Both the position numbers and the translations under genes were made by a program. A stretch of 58,309 bases of DNA, taken from positions 1 through 58,309 of the IMG/VR virus record IMGVR_UViG_3300032326_000971; one strand, 5' to 3'. The stretch's first letter is position 1, and the number at the start of each line of letters is the position of its first letter. Positions 499 to 49,559 of the stretch are shown piece after piece. Origin of the DNA: a virus. The notes beneath the pieces are model-generated. The model saw nothing but the letters and a program-made list of their open reading frames with translations. It did not search any database and was not told where the DNA came from.

Positions 499-654
499 AT
501 GAAAAGTAAATTAAAAATGATGAAGCGCGCAGATGGCTCATATTCACCTCGTGGATTATGGGATAATATTCGTGCGGCTGCTGGTTCAGGTAAAAAGCCT
601 ACGCCAGAAATGCTTAAACAAGAAAAGAAAATTAAAGCACAAGAAAAGAAATGA
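499..654 (+). CDS. small basic phage protein (51 aa)
   Basis: A 51-residue Lys-rich protein that starts MKSKLKMMKRADGSYSPRGL and ends in a charged helix (LKQEKKIKAQEKK). I recall short proteins with this SYSPRGLWDNIRAA-like core next to the DUF6321 family in other phages, but its function is not known. It starts 16 bases after the upstream gene and its stop overlaps the next start (ATGA), which supports translation coupling and a real gene. Confidence 0.7.
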   Translation: MKSKLKMMKRADGSYSPRGLWDNIRAAAGSGKKPTPEMLKQEKKIKAQEKK

Positions 655-1208
655 GTACACTAGAAAGAATATATGAAGAAAAGTGTAATACCTATTCTGA
701 TATAAACGAACATTTGCCTGTTCTAAAGAAATATACTGAAGAGTGCAATCATGTTACAGAAATGGGAGTTAGATGGGTTGTTTCTACATATGCATTTATG
801 ATGGGCAAGCCTAAAAAAATAATCTCCTATGATATAGAGCCAGTAGAGAAATGGGGAACTGAACAGAAATTTCTTATTGATTTAGCTAAAGAAAATGGAA
901 TAGATTTTGAGTTTCATATTGCAAATACATTAGATCTTGAAATAGAAGAAACAGACTTATTGTTTATAGATACTTTGCATAATTACAATCAGCTAAAAAA
1001 AGAATTAGAGTTACATGGTAATAAAAGTAATAAATATATCATTTTTCATGATACTACTACTTTTGAATGGAATGGCGAATCTTATGAAGGGAAAAAAGAA
1101 GTGGGTTTATGGCCAGCAATTGATGAATTTTTGAAAGAAAACGAGCATTGGGTAATACATGAAAGATTTACGAACAACAATGGATTAACGATTTTAAAAA
1201 GAAATTAA
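651..1208 (+). CDS. class I SAM-dependent methyltransferase (CmcI / Methyltransf_24-like)
   Basis: A 185-residue protein with a Rossmann-type methyltransferase pattern: motif I region TEMGVRWVVST (about residues 36-46, Gly39), an acidic residue at the end of strand 2 (SYDIEP, Asp61), and LLFIDTLHNY (Asp107, His110), followed by IIFHDTT near residue 126. This layout is seen in small methyltransferases related to cephalosporin hydroxylase/sugar O-methyltransferases, which often act on sugars or small molecules rather than DNA. Its start overlaps the upstream stop by four bases. It might modify a glycan made by the glycosyltransferase island at 44.8-49.3 kb, but that link is inference. Confidence 0.75.
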   Translation: MSTLERIYEEKCNTYSDINEHLPVLKKYTEECNHVTEMGVRWVVSTYAFMMGKPKKIISYDIEPVEKWGTEQKFLIDLAKENGIDFEFHIANTLDLEIEETDLLFIDTLHNYNQLKKELELHGNKSNKYIIFHDTTTFEWNGESYEGKKEVGLWPAIDEFLKENEHWVIHERFTNNNGLTILKRN

Positions 1209-39996: not shown

Positions 39997-40515
39997 ATGC
40001 CTCTTGTACCCAATTTTACGGCAAGCCAATATAGCGGTACGCCCTCAGTCATAACTTTGACCGATACTTCAACCGGCTCTGATGTTACTATTGCCAAGCG
40101 TAGAGTATATTTATTACAAGCTAATGGTACATTTTTAGTACCTGCTGGAACTACTACAGATTATATTCAATGGGACTTAGTAGATACAAGTATCAATTTA
40201 GATGTTCTATCTCAAGATAGTGCATTAAGTATAACTGTTCAATGGTTAACTTCTGCAAACGCGGTGGTTACGTCAAAAACAATTTCATTTGCATTTACTG
40301 CATACAATGAAACTTTTTACTACGGTCTTACAGAAAGCCAAGTAGCAAATTCAAATCTTAGTGCAAGTACCAATTGGTATCAAACAAAATTAGTATTGAG
40401 AGTTGAAATTGATTCGGCTGATCAAGCAATTACATTTGCATCTGATATTTATTCAGCACAAGCTGCATTAAACAGAGCGACATATATATCTACTAACCAA
40501 GCATTATTCTTCTAA
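39997..40515 (+). CDS. predicted tail protein (172 aa)
   Basis: A beta-rich 172-residue protein (SVITLTDTSTGSDVTIAKRR, IQWDLVDTSINLDVLSQDS) with aromatic-rich strand FAFTAYNETFYYGL. It starts the fibre operon and probably forms part of the tail or fibre base. No family confidently identified. Confidence 0.65.
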   Translation: MPLVPNFTASQYSGTPSVITLTDTSTGSDVTIAKRRVYLLQANGTFLVPAGTTTDYIQWDLVDTSINLDVLSQDSALSITVQWLTSANAVVTSKTISFAFTAYNETFYYGLTESQVANSNLSASTNWYQTKLVLRVEIDSADQAITFASDIYSAQAALNRATYISTNQALFF

Positions 40516-40517
40516 TC

Positions 40518-41051
40518 ATGTTAGATCCACAAACAGTAGTATCAATAGCGGAGATTTCACAATACTTGTGGAATGATGCAATACCAAAACAAAATGTTTT
40601 TTTCAATGGAAGTATTGATCCAAGAAAGGCTCAACAACTTTACATGGAAAGAAAAGCATTGCAATATGGCATTGACCAAAACCTAAGTGGATTACCAGGT
40701 ACGTCAAATTATGTATATGCTTTATGTGGTGCAAAACTACAATTGGCAATAGAGATATTAGGAAATGGAACAGGTGGTGGTGGTGTAATACCTGGCGGTG
40801 GTGGAAACTTTAGTGTATATGAATATACTACTAATGCAGTAGGTGGTTCATTTACAGTTTATTTCCCTGAAGCTGTAGGCAAAAGATGTATAAACGCCTT
40901 TAGACAAGGTAACAATATTGGAGCTATTTTAACATCAGGAACTCCAACAGGCAATCAAGTCGTTTGGAACTCTGCTGCTGGTAGTTTAACAGTAGCTTCA
41001 AGTGTTCCTTTTTATGCTAATGAGTTTGTGAGAGTGATTGTTCAACAATAA
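40518..41051 (+). CDS. predicted tail protein with C-terminal beta domain (177 aa)
   Basis: Helical N-terminal 85 residues (TVVSIAEISQYLWNDAIPKQ), a Gly-rich hinge (GTGGGGVIPGGGG, about 95-108), then a compact beta domain. The hinge-plus-beta plan suits an attachment or fibre protein. Lies two bases after the previous gene. Confidence 0.65.
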   Translation: MLDPQTVVSIAEISQYLWNDAIPKQNVFFNGSIDPRKAQQLYMERKALQYGIDQNLSGLPGTSNYVYALCGAKLQLAIEILGNGTGGGGVIPGGGGNFSVYEYTTNAVGGSFTVYFPEAVGKRCINAFRQGNNIGAILTSGTPTGNQVVWNSAAGSLTVASSVPFYANEFVRVIVQQ

Positions 41052-41062
41052 AATATTTTATA

Positions 41063-44005
41063 GTGGCGATACAAAATTTAATCAGCGGTGATTTAAAACT
41101 TAGAGATGAAAATGGTATTTTAATTGCCGTTAATGGTATTGTATCGGCTGATACTAGTGGAACAATAGGGACTTCGGGTACCTCGGGAACTTCAGGGACA
41201 AGTGGGACAACTGGTACTTCTGGAAGCAGTGGGACAAGTGGGACATCGGGGACAAGTGGTACTACTGGTACATCAGGTTCTTCTGGAACTGATGGAACGA
41301 ATGGTACTTCAGGTAGTAATGGTAGTAATGGAACTAGTGGATTATCGGGTTCTTCTGGTAGTTCCGGTACTTCAGCAACATCTGGAACTGATGGCACTTC
41401 TGGTTCTTCAGGTACAAGTGGATTTTCTGGCACAAGTGGCACTGATGGCACAAGTGGCACTTCAGGCTCTTCTGGAACATCCGGCACAAGTGGTACTGAT
41501 GGAACTTCCGGTACAAGCGGTACTGATGGCACAAGTGGTACTGATGGTACTTCTGGAACTGACGGCACTTCGGGTTCTTCTGGAACTGACGGCACCTCTG
41601 GTTCTAGTGGGACAGATGGCACAAGTGGAACTTCCGGATCTTCGGGGACAGCTGGTACTAGTGGTATTAGCGGGGTGTCTGGCGGTCAGGTATTTTATAT
41701 GAACCAATCGCTAAATACAAGTAGTGCTTTTGGTACTCCAACATATAAACAATTAAGTCCAAACCCTTCCGGAGCTGCTCAACAAATTGTGTCTATTACG
41801 GTACCTGCTAATACAACTGCTACATTAGTTACATTTGCGACTGATAGCGGCGTGCCTGGTTTAACTTCTTTGCCTGCTGGTAATTGGGGTTTTACAACTC
41901 ACTTTTTGACAAGTACTAATAATGCAGAATGGAATATATATTGTGAGCTTTGGAAATATACAACAGGGGGCGTATCTACATTGTTAGGTACAACTAATGA
42001 TGTGTTAATTGTTGCAAATGCTGCCATAGTGCAACAAGTTTATGTTGATTCATTTATAGCAGGACAATCATTAAATGCTTCAGATAGACTTTATGTAAAA
42101 GTTATTGGTATTAATTCAAGCAATCAATCACATAGTATTAATTTTTATACAGAAGGTTCTTCTTTTTATTCATACGTTCAAACAACTTTTACAGCTCCAT
42201 CAGGAACAAGTGGAACAAGTGGGACTACAGGCACAAGTGGATCTTCTGGAACTGACGGCACTAGTGGTTCTTCAGGTATTAATGGCACAAGCGGTACTTC
42301 TGGAGTTAATGGTGCAAGTGGCCTAAATGGAACTTCTGGTTCTAGTGGTACTTCAGGAGCCAATGGCTCTTCGGGTATTAACGGAACTTCAGGAACCGAT
42401 GGCACAAGTGGCACAGGTGGCACAAGTGGTATTAATGGTACTTCAGGTAGCTCTGGATTAACAGGAACTAGCGGTACTTCTGGAGTTAATGGGACTTCTG
42501 GAGTATCTGGTACTAGCGGAACTTCAGGTTCTAATGGTGTAAATGGTACTTCAGGCGTATCAGGAACTAGCGGTAGTAGTGGCGTAAGTGGTACTAGTGG
42601 CACAGCTGGTACAAGTGGTACATCTGTTGCTGTATCAGGGACCACAAACACAATGACTAAATTTACAAGTGCAACTACTATAGGTAATAGTGCATTAACT
42701 GATAATGGTTCAACACTTTCATATAATGGTAACACAGTTTTAAATGCAGCAAATTATAACTCTTATTCTCCTACATTAACTGGAGGGGGCGCTTCTGGTA
42801 CATGGAGTATTAATATTACAGGAAATGCAGGTAGTGCTAGTTCTGTAGCATGGGGCAACGTTTCTAGTAAGCCATCTTTGATAATGTATTATCAAGGATT
42901 TACTCTTAATGCTGACACTATGGACTCTAATAGTACAGGATTCACATATTCTGTCAATGCTCCTTGGACAGGCCCAATAGCTAGACTTAGTGCAGGGGGT
43001 AGTTATGATTTACAGCTAAATGCTAGATATAATGCAGGAGGAGTTCAAATATCATATAGAACAAGAAACGGAGATGCGGGTACTTGGAACTCTTGGTTTG
43101 AATTTATTAGTACTGCTAATATTGGTTCTCAAACTGTGAGTGCTGCATCTAGTGCAACATTTTTAAATAGTAATAATTATATTCAGCAAACAGGTTCTAC
43201 AGGATCTTGGAACAATGATTTTACAAACACACCTGCAGGAACTGCGAGATATAGTGGTGACGTTGGTGCGAATGGAACAAATGGACCAGGAGGGACTTGG
43301 TGGATTCAACAAAACTTTAGGCATACAAATGGAAATAGCTTTTGGGGAACACAAGTAGCCTGGGGATGGGAAGATAATGCAAATAGATTAGCTACAAGAA
43401 ATGTTTCAGGTGGTTCTTTTGGAGGATGGGTTTATTACATGAATACTAACGCATATCCTTATGCAGCTAATATGGATCAGTATGTAAGAACAACCGATGG
43501 TGTAACATTTGGGTCTATTTACTCACCTGGCAATTTGCAATGGGCTGGACAAGAATATTTTCAAGGAAGGTACAAGTATTTATGGTATGGGTATTGGAGT
43601 CAATGGTTAGATATTTATGGCGGTATAGGTGGTGGTAGCTTGTTTTACATGGACACACTTTATGCTACCTATGGTTCTGTTTCAGATATGAGATATAAGA
43701 AGGAAGTATCTAAATTGACTTATGGACTTAATGAGTTATTGCAAATGGACACAATTAAGTTTAAGTACGATTTGCCAGATAATCATGTATCAAAGGGTGA
43801 TAAAACTTTTCACTTAGGTTTTTCTGCACAGCAGTTACAAGATTTGATACCAGAGTTGATAATTGAAGATAAAAATTTCAACATGTTGGCTATTACACAA
43901 ACAGAATTATTGGCTGTAGTTGTTAATGGAATGAAAGAGCAACAAGAGATTATTAAAAATCAACAATTAGAAATCAACAATATAAAACAATTAATAAATA
44001 AATAA
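41063..44005 (+). CDS. collagen-like tail fibre with S74-type chaperone end (GTG start)
   Basis: A 980-residue fibre. Residues 33-208 and 380-521 are G-x-y repeats (mainly GTS, GSS, GTD), which fold as collagen triple helices in phage fibres. Between them is a beta domain (about 209-379), and after the second block comes a beta-rich receptor-binding-like region (about 560-860). The C-terminal 110 residues (SDMRYKKEVSKLTYGLNELL, then FHLGFSAQQLQDLIPEL) are a Peptidase_S74-type intramolecular chaperone that trimerises and cuts itself off. GTG (41063) is the start, 12 bases after the previous stop. Confidence 0.85.
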   Translation: MAIQNLISGDLKLRDENGILIAVNGIVSADTSGTIGTSGTSGTSGTSGTTGTSGSSGTSGTSGTSGTTGTSGSSGTDGTNGTSGSNGSNGTSGLSGSSGSSGTSATSGTDGTSGSSGTSGFSGTSGTDGTSGTSGSSGTSGTSGTDGTSGTSGTDGTSGTDGTSGTDGTSGSSGTDGTSGSSGTDGTSGTSGSSGTAGTSGISGVSGGQVFYMNQSLNTSSAFGTPTYKQLSPNPSGAAQQIVSITVPANTTATLVTFATDSGVPGLTSLPAGNWGFTTHFLTSTNNAEWNIYCELWKYTTGGVSTLLGTTNDVLIVANAAIVQQVYVDSFIAGQSLNASDRLYVKVIGINSSNQSHSINFYTEGSSFYSYVQTTFTAPSGTSGTSGTTGTSGSSGTDGTSGSSGINGTSGTSGVNGASGLNGTSGSSGTSGANGSSGINGTSGTDGTSGTGGTSGINGTSGSSGLTGTSGTSGVNGTSGVSGTSGTSGSNGVNGTSGVSGTSGSSGVSGTSGTAGTSGTSVAVSGTTNTMTKFTSATTIGNSALTDNGSTLSYNGNTVLNAANYNSYSPTLTGGGASGTWSINITGNAGSASSVAWGNVSSKPSLIMYYQGFTLNADTMDSNSTGFTYSVNAPWTGPIARLSAGGSYDLQLNARYNAGGVQISYRTRNGDAGTWNSWFEFISTANIGSQTVSAASSATFLNSNNYIQQTGSTGSWNNDFTNTPAGTARYSGDVGANGTNGPGGTWWIQQNFRHTNGNSFWGTQVAWGWEDNANRLATRNVSGGSFGGWVYYMNTNAYPYAANMDQYVRTTDGVTFGSIYSPGNLQWAGQEYFQGRYKYLWYGYWSQWLDIYGGIGGGSLFYMDTLYATYGSVSDMRYKKEVSKLTYGLNELLQMDTIKFKYDLPDNHVSKGDKTFHLGFSAQQLQDLIPELIIEDKNFNMLAITQTELLAVVVNGMKEQQEIIKNQQLEINNIKQLINK
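41159..41685 (+). repeat. collagen-like G-x-y coding repeat, block 1
   Basis: About 58 triplets of Gly-x-y, mostly GGN-ACN-TCN/AGY. Codons are mixed, so the repeat is held at protein level. Confidence 0.9.
42201..42626 (+). repeat. collagen-like G-x-y coding repeat, block 2
   Basis: About 47 triplets of the same type, with more GVN/GIN units than block 1, in the middle of the same fibre gene. Identical short stretches between the blocks could allow recombination. Confidence 0.9.
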
Positions 44006-44346
44006 TGAAACAAATACAACCAGTAACAGTATGGTCTAATGGTCAAGAGGTGCAAGCAGATGGATTGAACGCTTATGTTGTAAGTGATAACTTATTAAAT
44101 CAAGCTGTTTTTTATTACGGTATTGGAACTATAGTTTATAATTTATATCCAGCATTGCCATCAGTAAATGTATTAGCTTCAGGTAAACTTACAATGACAG
44201 GTCAATCTTATGAAGATTACCAAACAAATCAATATGCTTGGGATTGGGTAGCGCAACAGCTTAATTTAACTATTGTAGGTGATATTACAACCACTACAAC
44301 TACTACTGAAGCTCCTATAAATACAACTACTACAATAAATCAATAA
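44005..44346 (+). CDS. predicted fibre-associated protein with poly-Thr tail (113 aa)
   Basis: The ATG overlaps the fibre stop (TAATG). A 113-residue protein with a beta-rich first part (QPVTVWSNGQEVQADGLNAY, YYGIGTIVYNLYP) and a Thr-rich end (about residues 94-113, T runs broken by EAPIN). The same tail type occurs in three other predicted virion proteins. It may be a small accessory capping or linking the fibre. Confidence 0.65.
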   Translation: MKQIQPVTVWSNGQEVQADGLNAYVVSDNLLNQAVFYYGIGTIVYNLYPALPSVNVLASGKLTMTGQSYEDYQTNQYAWDWVAQQLNLTIVGDITTTTTTTEAPINTTTTINQ

Positions 44347-44373
44347 ATATTTGTCCAATATAATTAATTAAAT

Positions 44374-44381
44374 TAATTTTG
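44374..44381 (+). promoter_or_regulatory. Bacteroidota -7 element TAATTTTG with AT-only box
   Basis: TAATTTTG (exact TAnnTTTG) directly after TTAATTAAAT, forming the shared TTAATTAAATTAATTTTG arrangement, 16 bases before the ATG at 44398. Confidence 0.7.
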
Positions 44382-44397
44382 AACAAAATATAATTAT

Positions 44398-44829
44398 ATG
44401 AAATTAACACTAGGCGAAATTGCTACAATGTTTGATGAATTAAACGGGAGAGTTATTAACCAACAAACTGGAGAAAGAAGTAGTACTGGATTACTTTCAC
44501 AGAGGTTATCTATTAAAGTTAAATACATTTTAAATAATCAAATCAATAAAAAGATTGTTGATGAAAAGAAAGCTTTTGATGAAAGTTGTTTAGATATATT
44601 TAAAGAAATGATTGCTGAGGGTAAGGGGGAAGAAAGAGAAGGGCAATATTTAATTCCAGAAGAGCATACTCCTGAGTTAAGATCTCGTTTATCAGAATTA
44701 GAAAAAATTGAAAAGGATATTGAGGTTCCTGAATTATATATTGAAGATTTGTTTAATATAGAAACAGAGGATTATTACCCTGTTTTATTAGAAAAGTTTC
44801 TTAAAAAAGAAGTTTCTACTAATCCATAA
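44398..44829 (+). CDS. helical phage protein of unknown function (143 aa)
   Basis: An acidic, mainly helical 143-residue protein opening with KLTLGEIATMFDELNGRVIN. It has its own promoter with the AT-only box used for non-structural genes, so it may be an early/regulatory gene even though it lies after the fibre genes. I recall phage proteins starting in a similar way but no function. Confidence 0.6.
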   Translation: MKLTLGEIATMFDELNGRVINQQTGERSSTGLLSQRLSIKVKYILNNQINKKIVDEKKAFDESCLDIFKEMIAEGKGEEREGQYLIPEEHTPELRSRLSELEKIEKDIEVPELYIEDLFNIETEDYYPVLLEKFLKKEVSTNP

Positions 44830-44834
44830 AAATA

Positions 44835-44860
44835 AAGCAGGCTAAAAACCTGCTTCTTTT
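44835..44860. terminator. bidirectional terminator between convergent genes
   Basis: 7-bp stem AAGCAGG / CCTGCTT (44835-44841 with 44849-44855) with loop CTAAAAA. CTTTTATTTT follows on the plus side and TTATTTTTATGG on the minus side. The stem covers the stop and last codons of the minus-strand gene at 44842. Confidence 0.75.
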
Positions 44861-46923
44861 ATTTTATCTATAACCATATCTGATGTAATAGAAAGTTGAC
44901 ATTCCCATTGTCTATCTGTTCCTAAATGTATAGGGCAATAATCCCACTCGCCATTATATTTAAAATTAGGATTATTCCAACATCCATGACATACATTTTT
45001 ATTGGCTATTCTTGTGCAGTTGTGGGTAAATTCATTCCATTCTTCGGTGAAATTGGCAATCATATAGACAGGTTTGTTTAACGCCCATGCAACCCAGCTT
45101 AATCCTGAACTTAACCCTATAAAAAATTCACTACCTGCTATCCAATCCATCTTAGATTCAAGTGAAGGGGTAGTTATTTGTATGCAATTATCAAATGGAT
45201 TTGGTTCCAATGATACATTATAAACTTCATAGCCACCTTCAAAAACTAACCAATTTATTAGATCTTGCCATTGTGGTTTACCCCAGAACTTCATCCCTGC
45301 CGTAGAATTGGTTGAAATAGTCACATATTTGCCCATTTTCGGCACTTCTGGTATATAGGCTAGCTTAGGTACTATTTCTTTATAATCTAGTCCTAAAATG
45401 GTTGTAGCGACTTTTTGTAATGGTAGTGTAACTGGATTGACGGGCAATTTATTTAAGTCATAAAAATAACCAACTCTATAAAGTGCATAAAGGTTATTTA
45501 CTGTTGTGCCTGGTTCCGCAAAAGAAACATTAGGGGCTTCGTCAAATAATCGGTTCCAAAATGTACTACAAATAACCGTACATTCATGTTTTCTTTGAAA
45601 CTCAAAAACATACGGAATCCAAGCTAATGTATCTCCTAAAGCTTTGCTTTCAAATACTATATAAACACGCTTATCTTTTAAGTCTAGTACTTCATCATGG
45701 ATGAGCTTGTCGTTCTCCCATACTTTTGTATGCCATTTGGTATAATATTGCCTGTTAAGTTTTACCCAATGATTTGATTTTATTGTATTTTCATAAGCAA
45801 TACTGCCATCTTCATCACAAAATTGAACTTTAAAATCAATATCAGGAATACCCTTAATTTCTAGGAAAGGATTGTCCACAAAATGATGCGAAATACTGGA
45901 CAATTGTTTTCTAATAGAAAACTTTAGTATCTTTTTATAGGCTTCTTCATGTCTTAATGCGAAGGTCAATGAGGTACAATCGTTTGGTATAATATAATGC
46001 TGTTCCGAGTGTATTAATCCTAAGTATATGTCTAATGGCAAAATGTATTTATCGTACATGCCTGCGTATTGTAACAATTTTCGGCCTATAATTGGCAGTC
46101 CATAGCTGATGGCCTCCCTGATAACCAATGGATTAAGCTCTAATGTAGAGTTAAACATAAAAATATCTGCCGCCATCATAAAGTCAGGTATATCTTCTCT
46201 TTCTCCCCATACTTTTACATTTTTTGGTAAGTCTTTCATTAGTGGCTCCCAATAAGATTGAAAGTTCCCAGCCTGATTACCAATAAAATGAAACATCATA
46301 TCGGGGTATTTGCGTGCAATTTCAATCCCTTCTGCTTGGTTCTTGCCGGGTGTCCATAAGCCTACGTTGATAATATGCTTTTTATCAGGTTCAAATCCTA
46401 GCTTTGCTCTAGCTACAAATTTATCTATATCTGTTATTTTAACACGATCTATTGGATATGGAATTGTCACAAATTGGGAGTCCATATTGGCAAATATATC
46501 CTCATGCCAAGGGGTGCAGAATAGATATAAATCAGGATGAAATGCCTTTTGTGTATCTGGTTTGAATGAGGAGTTGTGGCAGGTTTCAGCTACTCTCCAA
46601 GTTCTGTCATTGCCGTATATTTTCTTAAATAATTCATTATTACCCATTAATTCGGGCATTTCGTCTAAATGAATAATATCCGGATTAATTGATTCTATGA
46701 TACGATAAGCCTCCATTTTGTTGTCACCAAGACTATAAAATTTATCTCCTAATAATTGCATAATTTGATTTCTTTGTACTGGAAAATGCTTACCATAATC
46801 AGCATACTCAATAACAAATATTTCAAAATCAGTATAATCTAATAGCGTTTTAATACGTTTAAGTACAAATTGGGGCATACCACCTGTGCTAAGGTGAGGC
46901 ATCAAGTATAATAATTTAATCAT
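44842..46923 (-). CDS. GT4 glycosyltransferase fused to TibC/Aah-like O-heptosyltransferase
   Basis: A 693-residue two-domain glycosyltransferase. Residues 1-345 form a GT4-type GT-B enzyme: LMPHLSTGGMPQF near the start, NVGLWTPGKNQ (about 187-196), and STLELNPLVIREA (about 259-271) containing the conserved E-x7-E pattern. Residues about 352-693 match the TibC/Aah family (autotransporter strand-loop-strand O-heptosyltransferase): VKLNRQYYTKW, YIVFESKALGDTLAWIPYVF (about 421-440), TVICSTFWNRLF, and the Cys set C645-HG-C648, C663, C675, which in TibC binds iron. Such enzymes glycosylate Ser residues of proteins. The family assignment of the second domain is strong; the acceptor here is unknown. 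Confidence 0.88.
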   Translation of the reverse strand: MIKLLYLMPHLSTGGMPQFVLKRIKTLLDYTDFEIFVIEYADYGKHFPVQRNQIMQLLGDKFYSLGDNKMEAYRIIESINPDIIHLDEMPELMGNNELFKKIYGNDRTWRVAETCHNSSFKPDTQKAFHPDLYLFCTPWHEDIFANMDSQFVTIPYPIDRVKITDIDKFVARAKLGFEPDKKHIINVGLWTPGKNQAEGIEIARKYPDMMFHFIGNQAGNFQSYWEPLMKDLPKNVKVWGEREDIPDFMMAADIFMFNSTLELNPLVIREAISYGLPIIGRKLLQYAGMYDKYILPLDIYLGLIHSEQHYIIPNDCTSLTFALRHEEAYKKILKFSIRKQLSSISHHFVDNPFLEIKGIPDIDFKVQFCDEDGSIAYENTIKSNHWVKLNRQYYTKWHTKVWENDKLIHDEVLDLKDKRVYIVFESKALGDTLAWIPYVFEFQRKHECTVICSTFWNRLFDEAPNVSFAEPGTTVNNLYALYRVGYFYDLNKLPVNPVTLPLQKVATTILGLDYKEIVPKLAYIPEVPKMGKYVTISTNSTAGMKFWGKPQWQDLINWLVFEGGYEVYNVSLEPNPFDNCIQITTPSLESKMDWIAGSEFFIGLSSGLSWVAWALNKPVYMIANFTEEWNEFTHNCTRIANKNVCHGCWNNPNFKYNGEWDYCPIHLGTDRQWECQLSITSDMVIDKIKEAGF

Positions 46924-46937
46924 AATATATATTTAAA

Positions 46938-46945
46938 CAAAACTA
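46938..46945 (-). promoter_or_regulatory. minus-strand promoter TAGTTTTG with AT-only box
   Basis: On the minus strand TTAATTAAATTAAT leads straight into TAGTTTTG, exact TAnnTTTG, 15 bases before the ATG at 46923. The box is shared with the divergent promoter at 46966. Confidence 0.7.
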
Positions 46946-46965
46946 ATTAATTTAATTAAAACTAC

Positions 46966-46973
46966 TATCTTTG
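46966..46973 (+). promoter_or_regulatory. plus-strand promoter TATCTTTG close to the ATG
   Basis: Exact TAnnTTTG match that ends only four bases before the ATG at 46978. Transcription would begin at or next to the start codon, so this mRNA is probably leaderless or nearly so. Confidence 0.65.
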
Positions 46974-46977
46974 TTTT

Positions 46978-47910
46978 ATGAAAAACTTAAGATTTATTTG
47001 CGCACAGCCGACTTCCTTGTTCTATGCATGGCAGGTAGAAGTATTAGTTAATAATTTTATTGACATGGGTATCAATCCTAATAATATTGATATTGTTAGT
47101 TGGAAAATCAATGGTGTAATACCTGTTGAATGGGTAAAACTTACTCAAAAATATCCTGTTAATTTTTATTTTTATAACGACACTAGGGAAACAAAGCATT
47201 ACATTTCATCTATCCGACCAAATATTTTAAAACAGCACTTTACTGCGCATCCTGAATTAGAAAGCGAGGCTATATTATATCATGATTGCGATATAGTATT
47301 TACAAAACCAATTGATTGGAAGCAATTTTTAGAAGATGATAAGTGGTACGGATCAGATACAAGATGGTACATTGCGCACAGTTATATTTTGGGTAAGGGT
47401 CAAGACATAATGGATAAAATGTGTGAGATAGTAGGCATAGAAGAGTCAGTCGTAAAGGATAACGAGCTTAATTCAATCGGTGCGCAATATTTAATGAAGG
47501 GCATCAATGCGGAGTTCTGGGCTAATGTAGAAAGAGATTGTGAAAATTTATTCAAGGATATAACTGCGATTAATAATGCCAAGAAAATGGAAAATCCTCA
47601 ATACCACGAACTACAAATATGGTGTGCAGATATGTGGGCAGTACTTTGGAATGGATGGAAATTGGGTAAAGAAACAGTTTGTCATCCTGATTTAGAGTTT
47701 GCATGGGGTACCAGTTCAGAAAGCGATTATGATAGGTTGAATATATTGCATAATGCCGGTGTAACTACTTCGGCTGATGGCTTGTTCTACAAGGCTGAAT
47801 TTATGAATAAATTGCCTTACAATCTTGATTTGAAAATAAAAGAAGGGACTGCTTCTAAAAAATATTATGAAATTATTCAAAGCGTAGAGAAAAAATCGGT
47901 ATTATTATGA
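46978..47910 (+). CDS. GT-A-fold-like glycosyltransferase
   Basis: A 310-residue protein with ILYHDCDIVF (DxD residues Asp103 and Asp105), the usual metal/nucleotide-sugar site of GT-A enzymes, and GAQYLMKGINAEFWAN and WCADMWAVLWNGWKLG later in the fold. The layout is like glycosyltransferases with a hydroxyproline-arabinosyltransferase-type plan, though I cannot name the subfamily. Diverges from the fusion enzyme at 46923. It probably builds the same glycan. Confidence 0.75.
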   Translation: MKNLRFICAQPTSLFYAWQVEVLVNNFIDMGINPNNIDIVSWKINGVIPVEWVKLTQKYPVNFYFYNDTRETKHYISSIRPNILKQHFTAHPELESEAILYHDCDIVFTKPIDWKQFLEDDKWYGSDTRWYIAHSYILGKGQDIMDKMCEIVGIEESVVKDNELNSIGAQYLMKGINAEFWANVERDCENLFKDITAINNAKKMENPQYHELQIWCADMWAVLWNGWKLGKETVCHPDLEFAWGTSSESDYDRLNILHNAGVTTSADGLFYKAEFMNKLPYNLDLKIKEGTASKKYYEIIQSVEKKSVLL

Positions 47911-48485
47911 TATTAGAATTTATAATACCTACTTACAACAGAATGAATAATTTAAGCGGTATGTTATTTTCATTGATAAATCAAAATAATAAAAATTGGA
48001 TTGCTAATGTTGTAATAGATAACGAACATTTACAAATGTATGATGATATAATAACAAGTTTCCAAAAAGAAGATAGAATTAAATTTAGTTTTATGGGAGA
48101 ACGTAGCAATGATTTTGGACATACACCAAGAAACTATGGATTAAAAAATTCATCCTCTGATTGGATAATTATGACTGGTGATGATAACTATTATGTTCCG
48201 ACTTTTGTAAATGAAGTAATGAATGCCATTGATAAAGATGTTAGGTTTATATATTGTGATATGATTCATAATGGGTACGATTATAAAATGTTTAATTGCC
48301 ATCACTCTTCCCATCATATAGATATTGGGAATATGGTTATGAAAACGGAATTGGCAAAAGACTTTGAATTAAAGACAAATAAGATAGATGCAGATGGGAT
48401 GTTTTGTAACGATTACATAAATAAACATTGCAAAAAAGAAGAAAATATTAAAAAAATAAACAAAATATTGTATGTTCATAATTAA
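47907..48485 (+). CDS. GT2-family glycosyltransferase (short)
   Basis: 192 residues, GT-A fold: IIPTYNRMNNLSG at the start, and WIIMTGDDNYYVP (Asp92/Asp93 as DxD-equivalent). At 192 residues it is shorter than most GT2 enzymes, and the usual catalytic ED/QxxRW part is not visible, so it may act with partners. Its ATG overlaps the stop of the previous gene by four bases. Confidence 0.8.
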   Translation: MILEFIIPTYNRMNNLSGMLFSLINQNNKNWIANVVIDNEHLQMYDDIITSFQKEDRIKFSFMGERSNDFGHTPRNYGLKNSSSDWIIMTGDDNYYVPTFVNEVMNAIDKDVRFIYCDMIHNGYDYKMFNCHHSSHHIDIGNMVMKTELAKDFELKTNKIDADGMFCNDYINKHCKKEENIKKINKILYVHN

Positions 48486-49335
48486 AGCTACTTATGGAGG
48501 TGTAGATTGTACTAATGTGTTACAGAGCAAATTAGTTGCTGGTAAATTAGTTATTAGATCCAACAATGATATAATAGGAGATCCATCAGTTGGGAATGTT
48601 AAGTATTTAGAAGTTGAATTTGAGGACGGCCATAAGGAGAAAGTGAGAGAAGGTGATACTTTGGTCTATCCTAAGTCCAAAAATAGAAAATTGGGTATCT
48701 TTTATTCAAATAACAACAATCATAAGATATGGCCTGCAATATATAAGTCCTTAGATACAATAAAGGAGGCAAGCGAAGGGGTAGCAGATATTGTGGTTTG
48801 TACTTGGGAGCCTATGTCGGACGTGCCATTTCAGCAAGTAAGAAGCTGGTACACTAGCCAATCTCATTTGAATCAGTTGTTGCAAATAATGCAATGTCTA
48901 TATACAGCTAAAACAATGGGTCAATATGACTATGTTTCTTTACTAGAGCATGATGTAATGTACCCCAAGGGTTATTTTGATTTTCCTGATTTCCCTAGTG
49001 GCCAGGTTCTAACTAATATGAATTATGGGGGTGTTTGTAAGAGTGGATGGCAAAACCGTACACAAAATGATGAGCCATTTCATCAAATGACCATGCGTTT
49101 TGATGATGCTATTGCTCATTGCTTATCCATATTACCTAACGCATTGGTAACAAATAGTGGTATGATAGAAACCCAGACGCTAAAAAGAAGCCAATGGGAT
49201 TGCCCTAATCAAGCGGTGCATATCAATCATGGAATCCATTTTACAAGTCATAACTCAATTTATGATAAACGAAATTTAACTGAAATTCATCCATATTGGG
49301 GTAATATTAACAATTATGAAAATTTATTTATATGA
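48472..49335 (+). CDS. DUF3395-like domain fused to glycosyltransferase-like domain
   Basis: Residues 3-67 (KATYGGVDCTNVL, LVIRSNNDIIGDP, YLEVEFEDGHKEKVREGDTL) resemble the DUF3395/DnaJ-C11-type beta domain. Residues about 72-287 look like a glycosyltransferase: QYDYVSLLEHDVMYPKGYFD (Glu159-His160-Asp161), then TNSGMIETQTL and HINHGIHFTSHNSIY. The start lies 14 bases inside the preceding gene. The fusion could place the enzyme on a particular acceptor. The second-domain assignment is weaker than the first. Confidence 0.65.
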   Translation: MFIIKATYGGVDCTNVLQSKLVAGKLVIRSNNDIIGDPSVGNVKYLEVEFEDGHKEKVREGDTLVYPKSKNRKLGIFYSNNNNHKIWPAIYKSLDTIKEASEGVADIVVCTWEPMSDVPFQQVRSWYTSQSHLNQLLQIMQCLYTAKTMGQYDYVSLLEHDVMYPKGYFDFPDFPSGQVLTNMNYGGVCKSGWQNRTQNDEPFHQMTMRFDDAIAHCLSILPNALVTNSGMIETQTLKRSQWDCPNQAVHINHGIHFTSHNSIYDKRNLTEIHPYWGNINNYENLFI

Positions 49336-49559
49336 ATCAAGTAAAAGAAATTCTATTGTCTTACATTGCTAAGTACAACAATCCAAGTGATGAGCAGAAA
49401 GAAATAGCTGAAAAAAGGCTTGAAATATGTTCTGGATGTGAGTTTTGGGTTCAATCTGCCATAAGGGATTATTGTAGCAAATGTGGTTGTACTACAAGTG
49501 CAAAGGTGTTTAGTCCCAAAGGTGCTGACGCTTGCCCTGAAAAAAAATGGACAGTTTAA
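49332..49559 (+). CDS. DUF6171-like small zinc protein
   Basis: 75 residues with RLEICSGCEFW, YCSKCGCTTSAKVFSPKGAD and ACP, a Cys-rich fold of the type called DUF6171 (C-x2-C / C-x2-C-x-C / C). It overlaps the previous gene by four bases and is the last gene of the island. The role is unknown. Confidence 0.75.
   Translation: MNQVKEILLSYIAKYNNPSDEQKEIAEKRLEICSGCEFWVQSAIRDYCSKCGCTTSAKVFSPKGADACPEKKWTV

What the first reader, a model, noticed from the sequence alone, without database searches (positions are those of the whole stretch)
39997..49559. Possible phage-encoded virion O-glycosylation system
The glycosylation island (four enzyme genes, 44842-49335) abuts the fibre genes. The virion proteins carry dense Thr/Ser tracts: collagen-like GTS/GSS blocks in the fibre and poly-Thr linkers in four other proteins. 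One island enzyme contains a TibC/Aah-type domain, whose known members attach heptose to Ser of surface adhesins. Collagen-like Thr residues are O-glycosylated in some bacterial collagens. Together these suggest the phage glycosylates its own fibres or linkers. That the acceptor is a phage protein, not host LPS, is inference.
Basis: partly seen in the sequence, partly recalled or inferred. Interest (0 to 1): 0.85.

Follow-up and report, generated by a model that had tools for sequence, protein, structure and literature searches.

The report
Phage sugar-transferase paired with collagen-like fibre
This virus of bacteria carries a relative of the enzymes that attach a sugar to serines of bacterial adhesins, and comparison across hundreds of phage and bacterial genomes indicates that its target is the phage's own collagen-like tail-fibre repeat, so many phages probably sugar-coat their fibres.

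Summary
44842-46923(-) encodes a GT4 domain fused to a TibC/Aah-type O-glycosyltransferase (BAHT; TIGR04414 226 bits, cut-off 200; PDB TibC E 1e-40). It converges on a collagen-like fibre gene (41063-44005; 105 Gly-X-Y triplets, 70% Ser at Y). All 23 BAHT-bearing relatives examined keep this order. The link extends far beyond them. BAHTs split into two clades: one partnered with autotransporters (GTS-repeat gene nearby 0/10), and one dominated by viruses whose neighbour is a GTS/GSS-repeat gene (34/39, excluding contigs chosen for GTS). The second clade includes bacteria where the repeat is a small secreted protein. Viral contigs with GTS collagen carry a BAHT in 21/50; other collagen, 1/50. 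Poly-Thr does not track BAHT. Another island glycosyltransferase, without BAHT, shows GTS in 1/34 loci. Known BAHTs modify Ser, not Thr. The likely acceptor is therefore Ser at Y of the fibre, not the poly-Thr linkers. The sugar is uncertain: the adenine-contacting Arg is lost in most of this clade (Lys here). No glycan has been observed; this is comparative genomics. Phage virion glycosylation is known (mycobacteriophages), but a BAHT-collagen pair appears undescribed.

The parts
44842..46923 (-). Fused glycosyltransferase, 693 aa: N-terminal GT4 domain and C-terminal BAHT (TibC/Aah-type O-glycosyltransferase)
44854..45849 (-). BAHT domain (residues 359-690); catalytic Asp431 (TibC D110), iron-finger Cys645/648/663/675 and the TibC Thr226, Lys230 and Trp305 equivalents kept; TibC Arg286 is Lys, TibC Pro300 is Ser
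46084..46416 (-). GT4 (Glycos_transf_1) core, residues 170-280; presumed second-sugar transferase
   Evidence: E 4e-11
41063..44005 (+). Collagen-like tail fibre with C-terminal S74 intramolecular chaperone; presumed acceptor
41159..41374 (+). Gly-X-Y run, 24 triplets (GTS/GSS type)
41384..41689 (+). Gly-X-Y run, 34 triplets
42203..42625 (+). Gly-X-Y run, 47 triplets
44834..44856 (.). Terminator-like hairpin on both strands between the convergent fibre and BAHT transcription units
   Evidence: consensus match only; about as many expected by chance
39997..40515 (+). Conserved gene upstream of the fibre (gA172), kept with gB177 and the fibre in 23 relatives
40518..41051 (+). Conserved gene upstream of the fibre (gB177)
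46978..47910 (+). GT-A/GT8-like putative glycosyltransferase (phrog_4417); variable cargo, not tied to GTS repeats
47907..48485 (+). GT2 family glycosyltransferase; variable cargo
48472..49335 (+). Unknown; N-terminus like rhamnose-binding (SUEL) lectins, C-terminal part with an EHDVMYP motif that may be a GT-A Asp motif (inference)

Best explanation
The gene encodes a two-domain protein glycosyltransferase. During infection its BAHT domain attaches a sugar in the cytoplasm to Ser residues, most likely the Y position of the Gly-Thr/Ser-Ser triplets of the phage's own collagen-like fibre, before or during trimer assembly; the fused GT4 domain probably adds a second sugar. Shown here: domain identity, kept catalytic and iron-binding residues, and a specific genomic pairing with GTS/GSS repeats across phages, bacteria and archaea. 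Inferred: that the repeat is the acceptor, that Ser at Y is the site, that GT4 extends the glycan. Open: the donor sugar (a heptose is the family precedent) and the benefit (fibre stiffness or triple-helix stability without proline, protection from proteases, or a changed surface for host binding).
For: Domain: TIGR04414 226 bits over the equivalog cut-off, TibC 1e-40; Asp110, Lys230, Trp305 and four Cys equivalents kept in 64-66 of 66 clade members. Same-genus relatives: collagen fibre then convergent BAHT in 23 of 23. Distant viral BAHT loci: GTS gene within 6 kb downstream in 40/47, upstream in 5/53. GTS-collagen contigs carry BAHT 21/50, non-GTS collagen contigs 1/50 (p 9e-7). In BAHT windows from GTS-selected contigs, 14 of 22 have a GTS gene within about 10 kb, some convergent, some codirectional. 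Bacteria and archaea: in 11 of 14 genomes (1.7-9.2 Mb) every long G[ST][ST] run lies inside the 5-17 kb BAHT locus, several within 8-172 bp of BAHT, in small proteins with signal peptides or lipoboxes by eye. Methylococcales: 6 of 7 GTS-type BAHTs adjoin a GTS gene, the seventh adjoins an apparent orthologue whose repeat is poly-Ser; Ser/Thr runs in about 6 of 194 other genomes (p 7e-8). Tree: 99% split between an autotransporter clade (AIDA/PF03797 partners checked in 3; GTS 0/10) and the GTS clade (34/39). Ser at Y is 67-72% in every BAHT-linked set, using both Ser codon families. Isolated Microcystis phage Mel-JY01 has the same pair.
Against: No glycan has been seen; all evidence is association. 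About a third of GTS-positive contigs of 50 kb or more lack a TIGR04414 match (7 of 22), so the repeat can exist without this enzyme or with another. Nine clade members show no GTS gene in the held flanks. Ser at Y is as frequent in GTS contigs without BAHT (78%), so Ser is not itself a mark of the enzyme. The adenine-contacting Arg is missing. Contigs are not independent, so p-values are too small. The BAHT gene is transcribed opposite to the fibre, so coordinated expression is not shown.
Confidence: 0.8

Rival explanations
1. Same enzyme and acceptor, but the donor is not ADP-heptose: the clade has changed nucleotide or sugar specificity. (This competes with the heptose precedent only, not with the acceptor claim.)
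For: TibC Arg286, which contacts adenine N1 and is needed for activity (PMC4358343), is 21/21 Arg in the autotransporter clade but 16/66 in this clade (31 Thr; Lys in the window). The window and nearly all phages tested lack an ADP-heptose adenylyltransferase; 1 of 46 over cut-off.
Against: Thr226, Lys230, Trp305 and Asp110 are kept; the donor can come from the host. The Arg contact is described as weak.
Confidence: 0.45
2. The enzyme modifies a host surface molecule (LPS or a surface protein), for example to block superinfection; the fibre is a bystander.
For: Phage glycosyltransferases that alter host antigens are known (own knowledge; mentioned in PMC12619734); GT9 relatives act on LPS core; the gene is not in the late operon.
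Against: Pairing with GTS repeats recurs in bacteria with no phage context evident. The domain passes the protein-specific BAHT cut-off while LPS heptosyltransferase I scores 18.9 bits against a cut-off of 185. Non-GTS collagen phages do not carry it.
Confidence: 0.07
3. Linkage without function: BAHT is cargo that sits in the tail-fibre region, where glycosyltransferases and collagen fibres both accumulate.
For: Tail modules of phages often carry cargo; within the genus both genes are simply conserved.
Against: A different glycosyltransferase from the same island shows no GTS link without BAHT (1/34); gene order differs among lineages while linkage stays; bacterial pairs.
Confidence: 0.08

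Closest known systems
BAHT family (TibC, AAH; TIGR04414)
   Same: Fold family, catalytic Asp, iron-finger Cys, donor phosphate and sugar contacts; genomic pairing with a repeat-rich Ser/Thr surface protein
   Different: Partner is a collagen-like or GSS-repeat protein, not an autotransporter; mostly viral; fused to GT4 (and FkbM, other GT in relatives); adenine-contacting Arg mostly lost; separate clade at 99% SH-aLRT
Mycobacteriophage virion glycosylation (Freeman et al. 2023, PMC10527164, as cited in PMC12619734)
   Same: Phage-encoded glycosyltransferases presumed to modify virion proteins
   Different: There capsid and tail tube C-termini; here a collagen-like fibre and a BAHT enzyme. No glycan shown here
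Glycosylated collagen-like proteins of spores (BclA; reviewed in PMC8968730)
   Same: Gly-X-Y repeat as presumed glycan acceptor
   Different: Gram-positive collagens favour Pro at X and Thr at Y; here Thr/Ser at X and Ser at Y, almost no Pro
Giant-virus collagen glycosylation (mimivirus, mentioned in PMC8968730)
   Same: A virus that glycosylates its own collagen
   Different: That is an amoeba virus modifying hydroxylysine (own knowledge); unrelated chemistry

Membership tests
BAHT (autotransporter O-heptosyltransferase) | TIGR04414 equivalog score | tested here: met
   226.1 bits, cut-off 200
BAHT (autotransporter O-heptosyltransferase) | Catalytic Asp (D110) and Thr226, Lys230, Trp305 | tested here: met
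   All four present in the window
BAHT (autotransporter O-heptosyltransferase) | Arg286 contact to adenine of ADP-sugar | tested here: not met
   Lys in the window; 16/66 Arg in the clade, 21/21 in the autotransporter clade
BAHT (autotransporter O-heptosyltransferase) | Four-Cys iron finger | tested here: met
   Cys645/648/663/675
BAHT (autotransporter O-heptosyltransferase) | N-terminal TibC beta-barrel domain (PF21129) | tested here: inconclusive
   12.8 bits, below cut-off 27; TIGR04414 covers from position 24
BAHT (autotransporter O-heptosyltransferase) | Adjacent autotransporter substrate | tested here: not met
   Neighbour is a collagen-like fibre; no autotransporter family among the ten genes scanned next to it
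BAHT (autotransporter O-heptosyltransferase) | Dodecamer and heptose transfer to Ser | not testable with these tools
   Needs biochemistry
Phage virion glycosylation system | Glycan detected on a virion protein | not testable with these tools
   Needs mass spectrometry of virions
Phage virion glycosylation system | Glycosyltransferase genes genetically linked to virion protein genes | tested here: met
   23/23 genus members; wide linkage
Collagen-like tail fibre | Gly-X-Y repeats and a trimerising or chaperone domain | tested here: met
   PF01391 E 3e-41, PF13884 E 3e-8

The most novel reading that the evidence does not exclude
There is a separate, virus-dominated subfamily of BAHT enzymes whose dedicated substrate is the proline-poor Gly-Thr/Ser-Ser collagen-like (or poly-Ser) repeat; phages use it to glycosylate tail fibres and bacteria to glycosylate small secreted repeat proteins, with the glycan on Ser at Y doing for these collagens what hydroxyproline does in animals.
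Probability: 0.5. Interest if true: 0.88.

Novelty: new variant of a known kind. Interest (0 to 1): 0.78.

Why it matters
It gives a named substrate prediction for a large family of environmental phage glycosyltransferases, and it could explain how proline-poor Gly-Thr-Ser collagens are stable: a sugar on the Y residue. If true, glycosylated tail fibres are common in aquatic phages, which bears on host range, receptor evolution and phage stability, and offers a cytoplasmic enzyme that decorates a simple repeat peptide, a useful tool for making glycosylated collagen materials. It is directly testable with one enzyme and one peptide.

Tried and rejected
Island as a functional unit: rejected, since 46978-type genes without BAHT have no GTS link and the island genes vary among relatives. 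Poly-Thr as acceptor: rejected on co-occurrence. Own ADP-heptose pathway in the phages: adenylyltransferase absent except in one of 46; the Mel-JY01 'cytidylyltransferase' looks like another nucleotidyltransferase by eye. Structure of 48472-49335: failed. Guessing contig identity from accession numbers (as in notebook entry 4) was abandoned after one search placed the Methylobacter BAHT on a different contig from its extra repeat; L208 and L203 are therefore counted as repeats outside the BAHT locus. Contig G010 (IMGVR_UViG_3300032323_002596) holds two inverted copies of the terminase region and was left out as a likely chimera. Searches were input errors. Literature: no paper joining O-heptosyltransferase and phage, or heptosyltransferase and collagen-like, on this point; the library holds open-licence papers only.
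Full report
What is there. The window is a 58.3-kb virus record. Its terminase is 81-100% identical to 79 IMG/VR loci, and its nearest cultured relatives are Flavobacterium and Cellulophaga phages at about 28% identity, so a Bacteroidota host is likely. The fibre gene 41063-44005 encodes collagen repeats and an S74 chaperone. The gene 44842-46923 on the opposite strand encodes a GT4 domain and a BAHT domain that passes the NCBIfam equivalog cut-off for hepto_Aah_TibC and matches the solved TibC structure sequence at E 1e-40. The two transcription units converge on a terminator-like hairpin at 44834-44856 (consensus only).

Is the active site intact? The TibC paper (PMC4358343) names Asp110 as catalytic base, Arg286, Trp305, Thr226 and Lys230 as donor contacts, four Cys in an iron finger, and Pro300 as a stereoselectivity switch. 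Mapped on an alignment of 87 BAHTs with TibC, the window keeps all but Arg286 (Lys) and Pro300 (Ser, as in AAH). In the clade that holds the window, Asp110, Lys230, Trp305 and the Cys are kept in 64-66 of 66, Arg286 in only 16. Transferase chemistry is therefore probably kept; donor identity is not assured.

What is the partner? In 23 relatives with the gene, the order gA172, gB177, collagen fibre, then convergent BAHT is constant, while 46978-49335 genes vary. This alone proves little, as the relatives are close. In the 80 best viral loci a GTS-type collagen gene lies within 6 kb downstream, on the opposite strand, in 40 of 47 with enough flank, against 5 of 53 upstream.

Controls. Contigs picked for GTS collagen without regard to BAHT carried one in 21 of 50 (15 of 22 at 50 kb or more). 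Contigs picked for other collagen (proline-rich or mixed) carried one in 1 of 50 (1 of 19); the latter sample includes some shorter contigs, hence the length-limited comparison. Contigs picked for poly-Thr linkers, a sample that selects for neither, had BAHT in 3 of 42, all among the 5 with GTS. Loci picked for the neighbouring glycosyltransferase 46978-47910 had GTS in 1 of 34 when BAHT was absent. In GTS-selected contigs the BAHT-GTS arrangement is convergent in some and codirectional in others, so linkage outlives rearrangement.

Beyond phages. The bacterial and archaeal BAHTs closest to the phage ones (Methylobacter, Methylomicrobium, Polaromonas, Arenicellales and others) lie beside short GTS/GSS-repeat proteins, several with signal peptides or lipoboxes by eye, at distances of 8 to 172 bp in the tightest cases. 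A whole-genome pattern search found long G[ST][ST] runs in 14 of 19 such genomes; in 11 every match lay inside the BAHT locus, in one more 12 of 13, and in two (L208, L203) outside it. Some of these contigs, chiefly from MAGs, may themselves be viral. In 201 Methylococcales genomes, 7 have the GTS-type BAHT and 6 of these have a GTS gene as next neighbour; the seventh (L643) has an apparent orthologue, judged by its signal-peptide region, whose repeat has become poly-Ser; 4 genomes have high-scoring BAHTs (about 655 bits) without GTS in the 4-kb locus. The poly-Ser case suggests that Ser, not the triple helix, is what is retained.

Two clades. A tree of 87 BAHT domains (quick method, SH-aLRT only, mid-point drawing) separates 21 bacterial rows from 66 rows (47 viral) at 99%. 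Next to the first group stand AIDA/autotransporter genes where checked (L246, L231, L247). GTS presence is 0 of 10 in the first and 44 of 53 in the second, or 34 of 39 without the GTS-selected contigs (counts, Fisher). Two rows were set by hand from the pattern positions.

Which residue? BAHTs transfer to Ser and not Thr. In the window fibre Ser is 70% of Y and Thr 66% of X; Y-Ser is 67-72% across all BAHT-linked sets, written with both TCN and AGY codons, so it is kept at the protein level and is not just a copied DNA repeat. GTS contigs without BAHT have the same bias, which may mean other enzymes, an incomplete contig, or a role for Ser independent of glycosylation.

Extension. Relatives carry next to BAHT a methyltransferase-glycosyltransferase-like gene of about 450 aa (by eye), or one polypeptide with FkbM methyltransferase, sugar-transferase, GT4 and BAHT domains. 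Fusion suggests consecutive steps of one glycan: BAHT first, GT4 second, then further sugar and methyl caps (inference). The window has the GT4-BAHT pair only.

Verdict. The phage very probably glycosylates its own collagen-like fibre with a BAHT-derived enzyme. Membership in the BAHT sequence family is met, but two features of the characterised members, the autotransporter partner and the adenine-contacting Arg, are not, so it should be called a sister subfamily and not an autotransporter heptosyltransferase. Phage virion glycosylation has precedent in mycobacteriophages. P-values quoted treat contigs as independent and are optimistic.

Noticed in passing
window 48472-49335: Residues about 27-76 of this unknown protein resemble L-rhamnose-binding (SUEL) lectins by profile (5h4s, E 1.7e-11), fused to a region with an EHDVMYP motif: perhaps a lectin-glycosyltransferase.
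   Followed up: partly
L099 3847-7317, L124 6707-11050, L116 4750-8430: BAHT fused in single polypeptides of 1156-1447 aa with methyltransferase, other glycosyltransferase and GT4 domains: assembly-line-like glycan enzymes in phages, including isolated Microcystis phage Mel-JY01.
   Followed up: partly
L643 2650-4000 (-): In one Methylococcales genome the secreted neighbour of BAHT has poly-Ser in place of GTS repeats, a natural variant that points to Ser as the kept feature.
   Followed up: partly
L216, L200: Records titled as archaea (Nitrosotalea, Thermoplasmatales) hold a GTS-type BAHT near a GTS collagen gene; L216's BAHT groups with a viral one (L633), so these may be archaeal virus sequences.
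   Followed up: no
L196, L198: A viral collagen-like gene (3117 aa) with an uninterrupted run of 684 Gly-X-Y triplets beside BAHT.
   Followed up: no
G063, G081: Viral contigs with more than one BAHT match, of distant types.
   Followed up: no
G067 144669-145088: One GTS and BAHT phage contig carries an HldE-II-like ADP-heptose adenylyltransferase over the curated cut-off.
   Followed up: no
L101 3772-4149 and relatives: A DUF6165 gene next to the BAHT cluster in many relatives; absent from the window's island as read.
   Followed up: no
window 651-1208: Methyltransferase-like gene far from the island (by eye; no Pfam match), perhaps another glycan-modifying gene.
   Followed up: no
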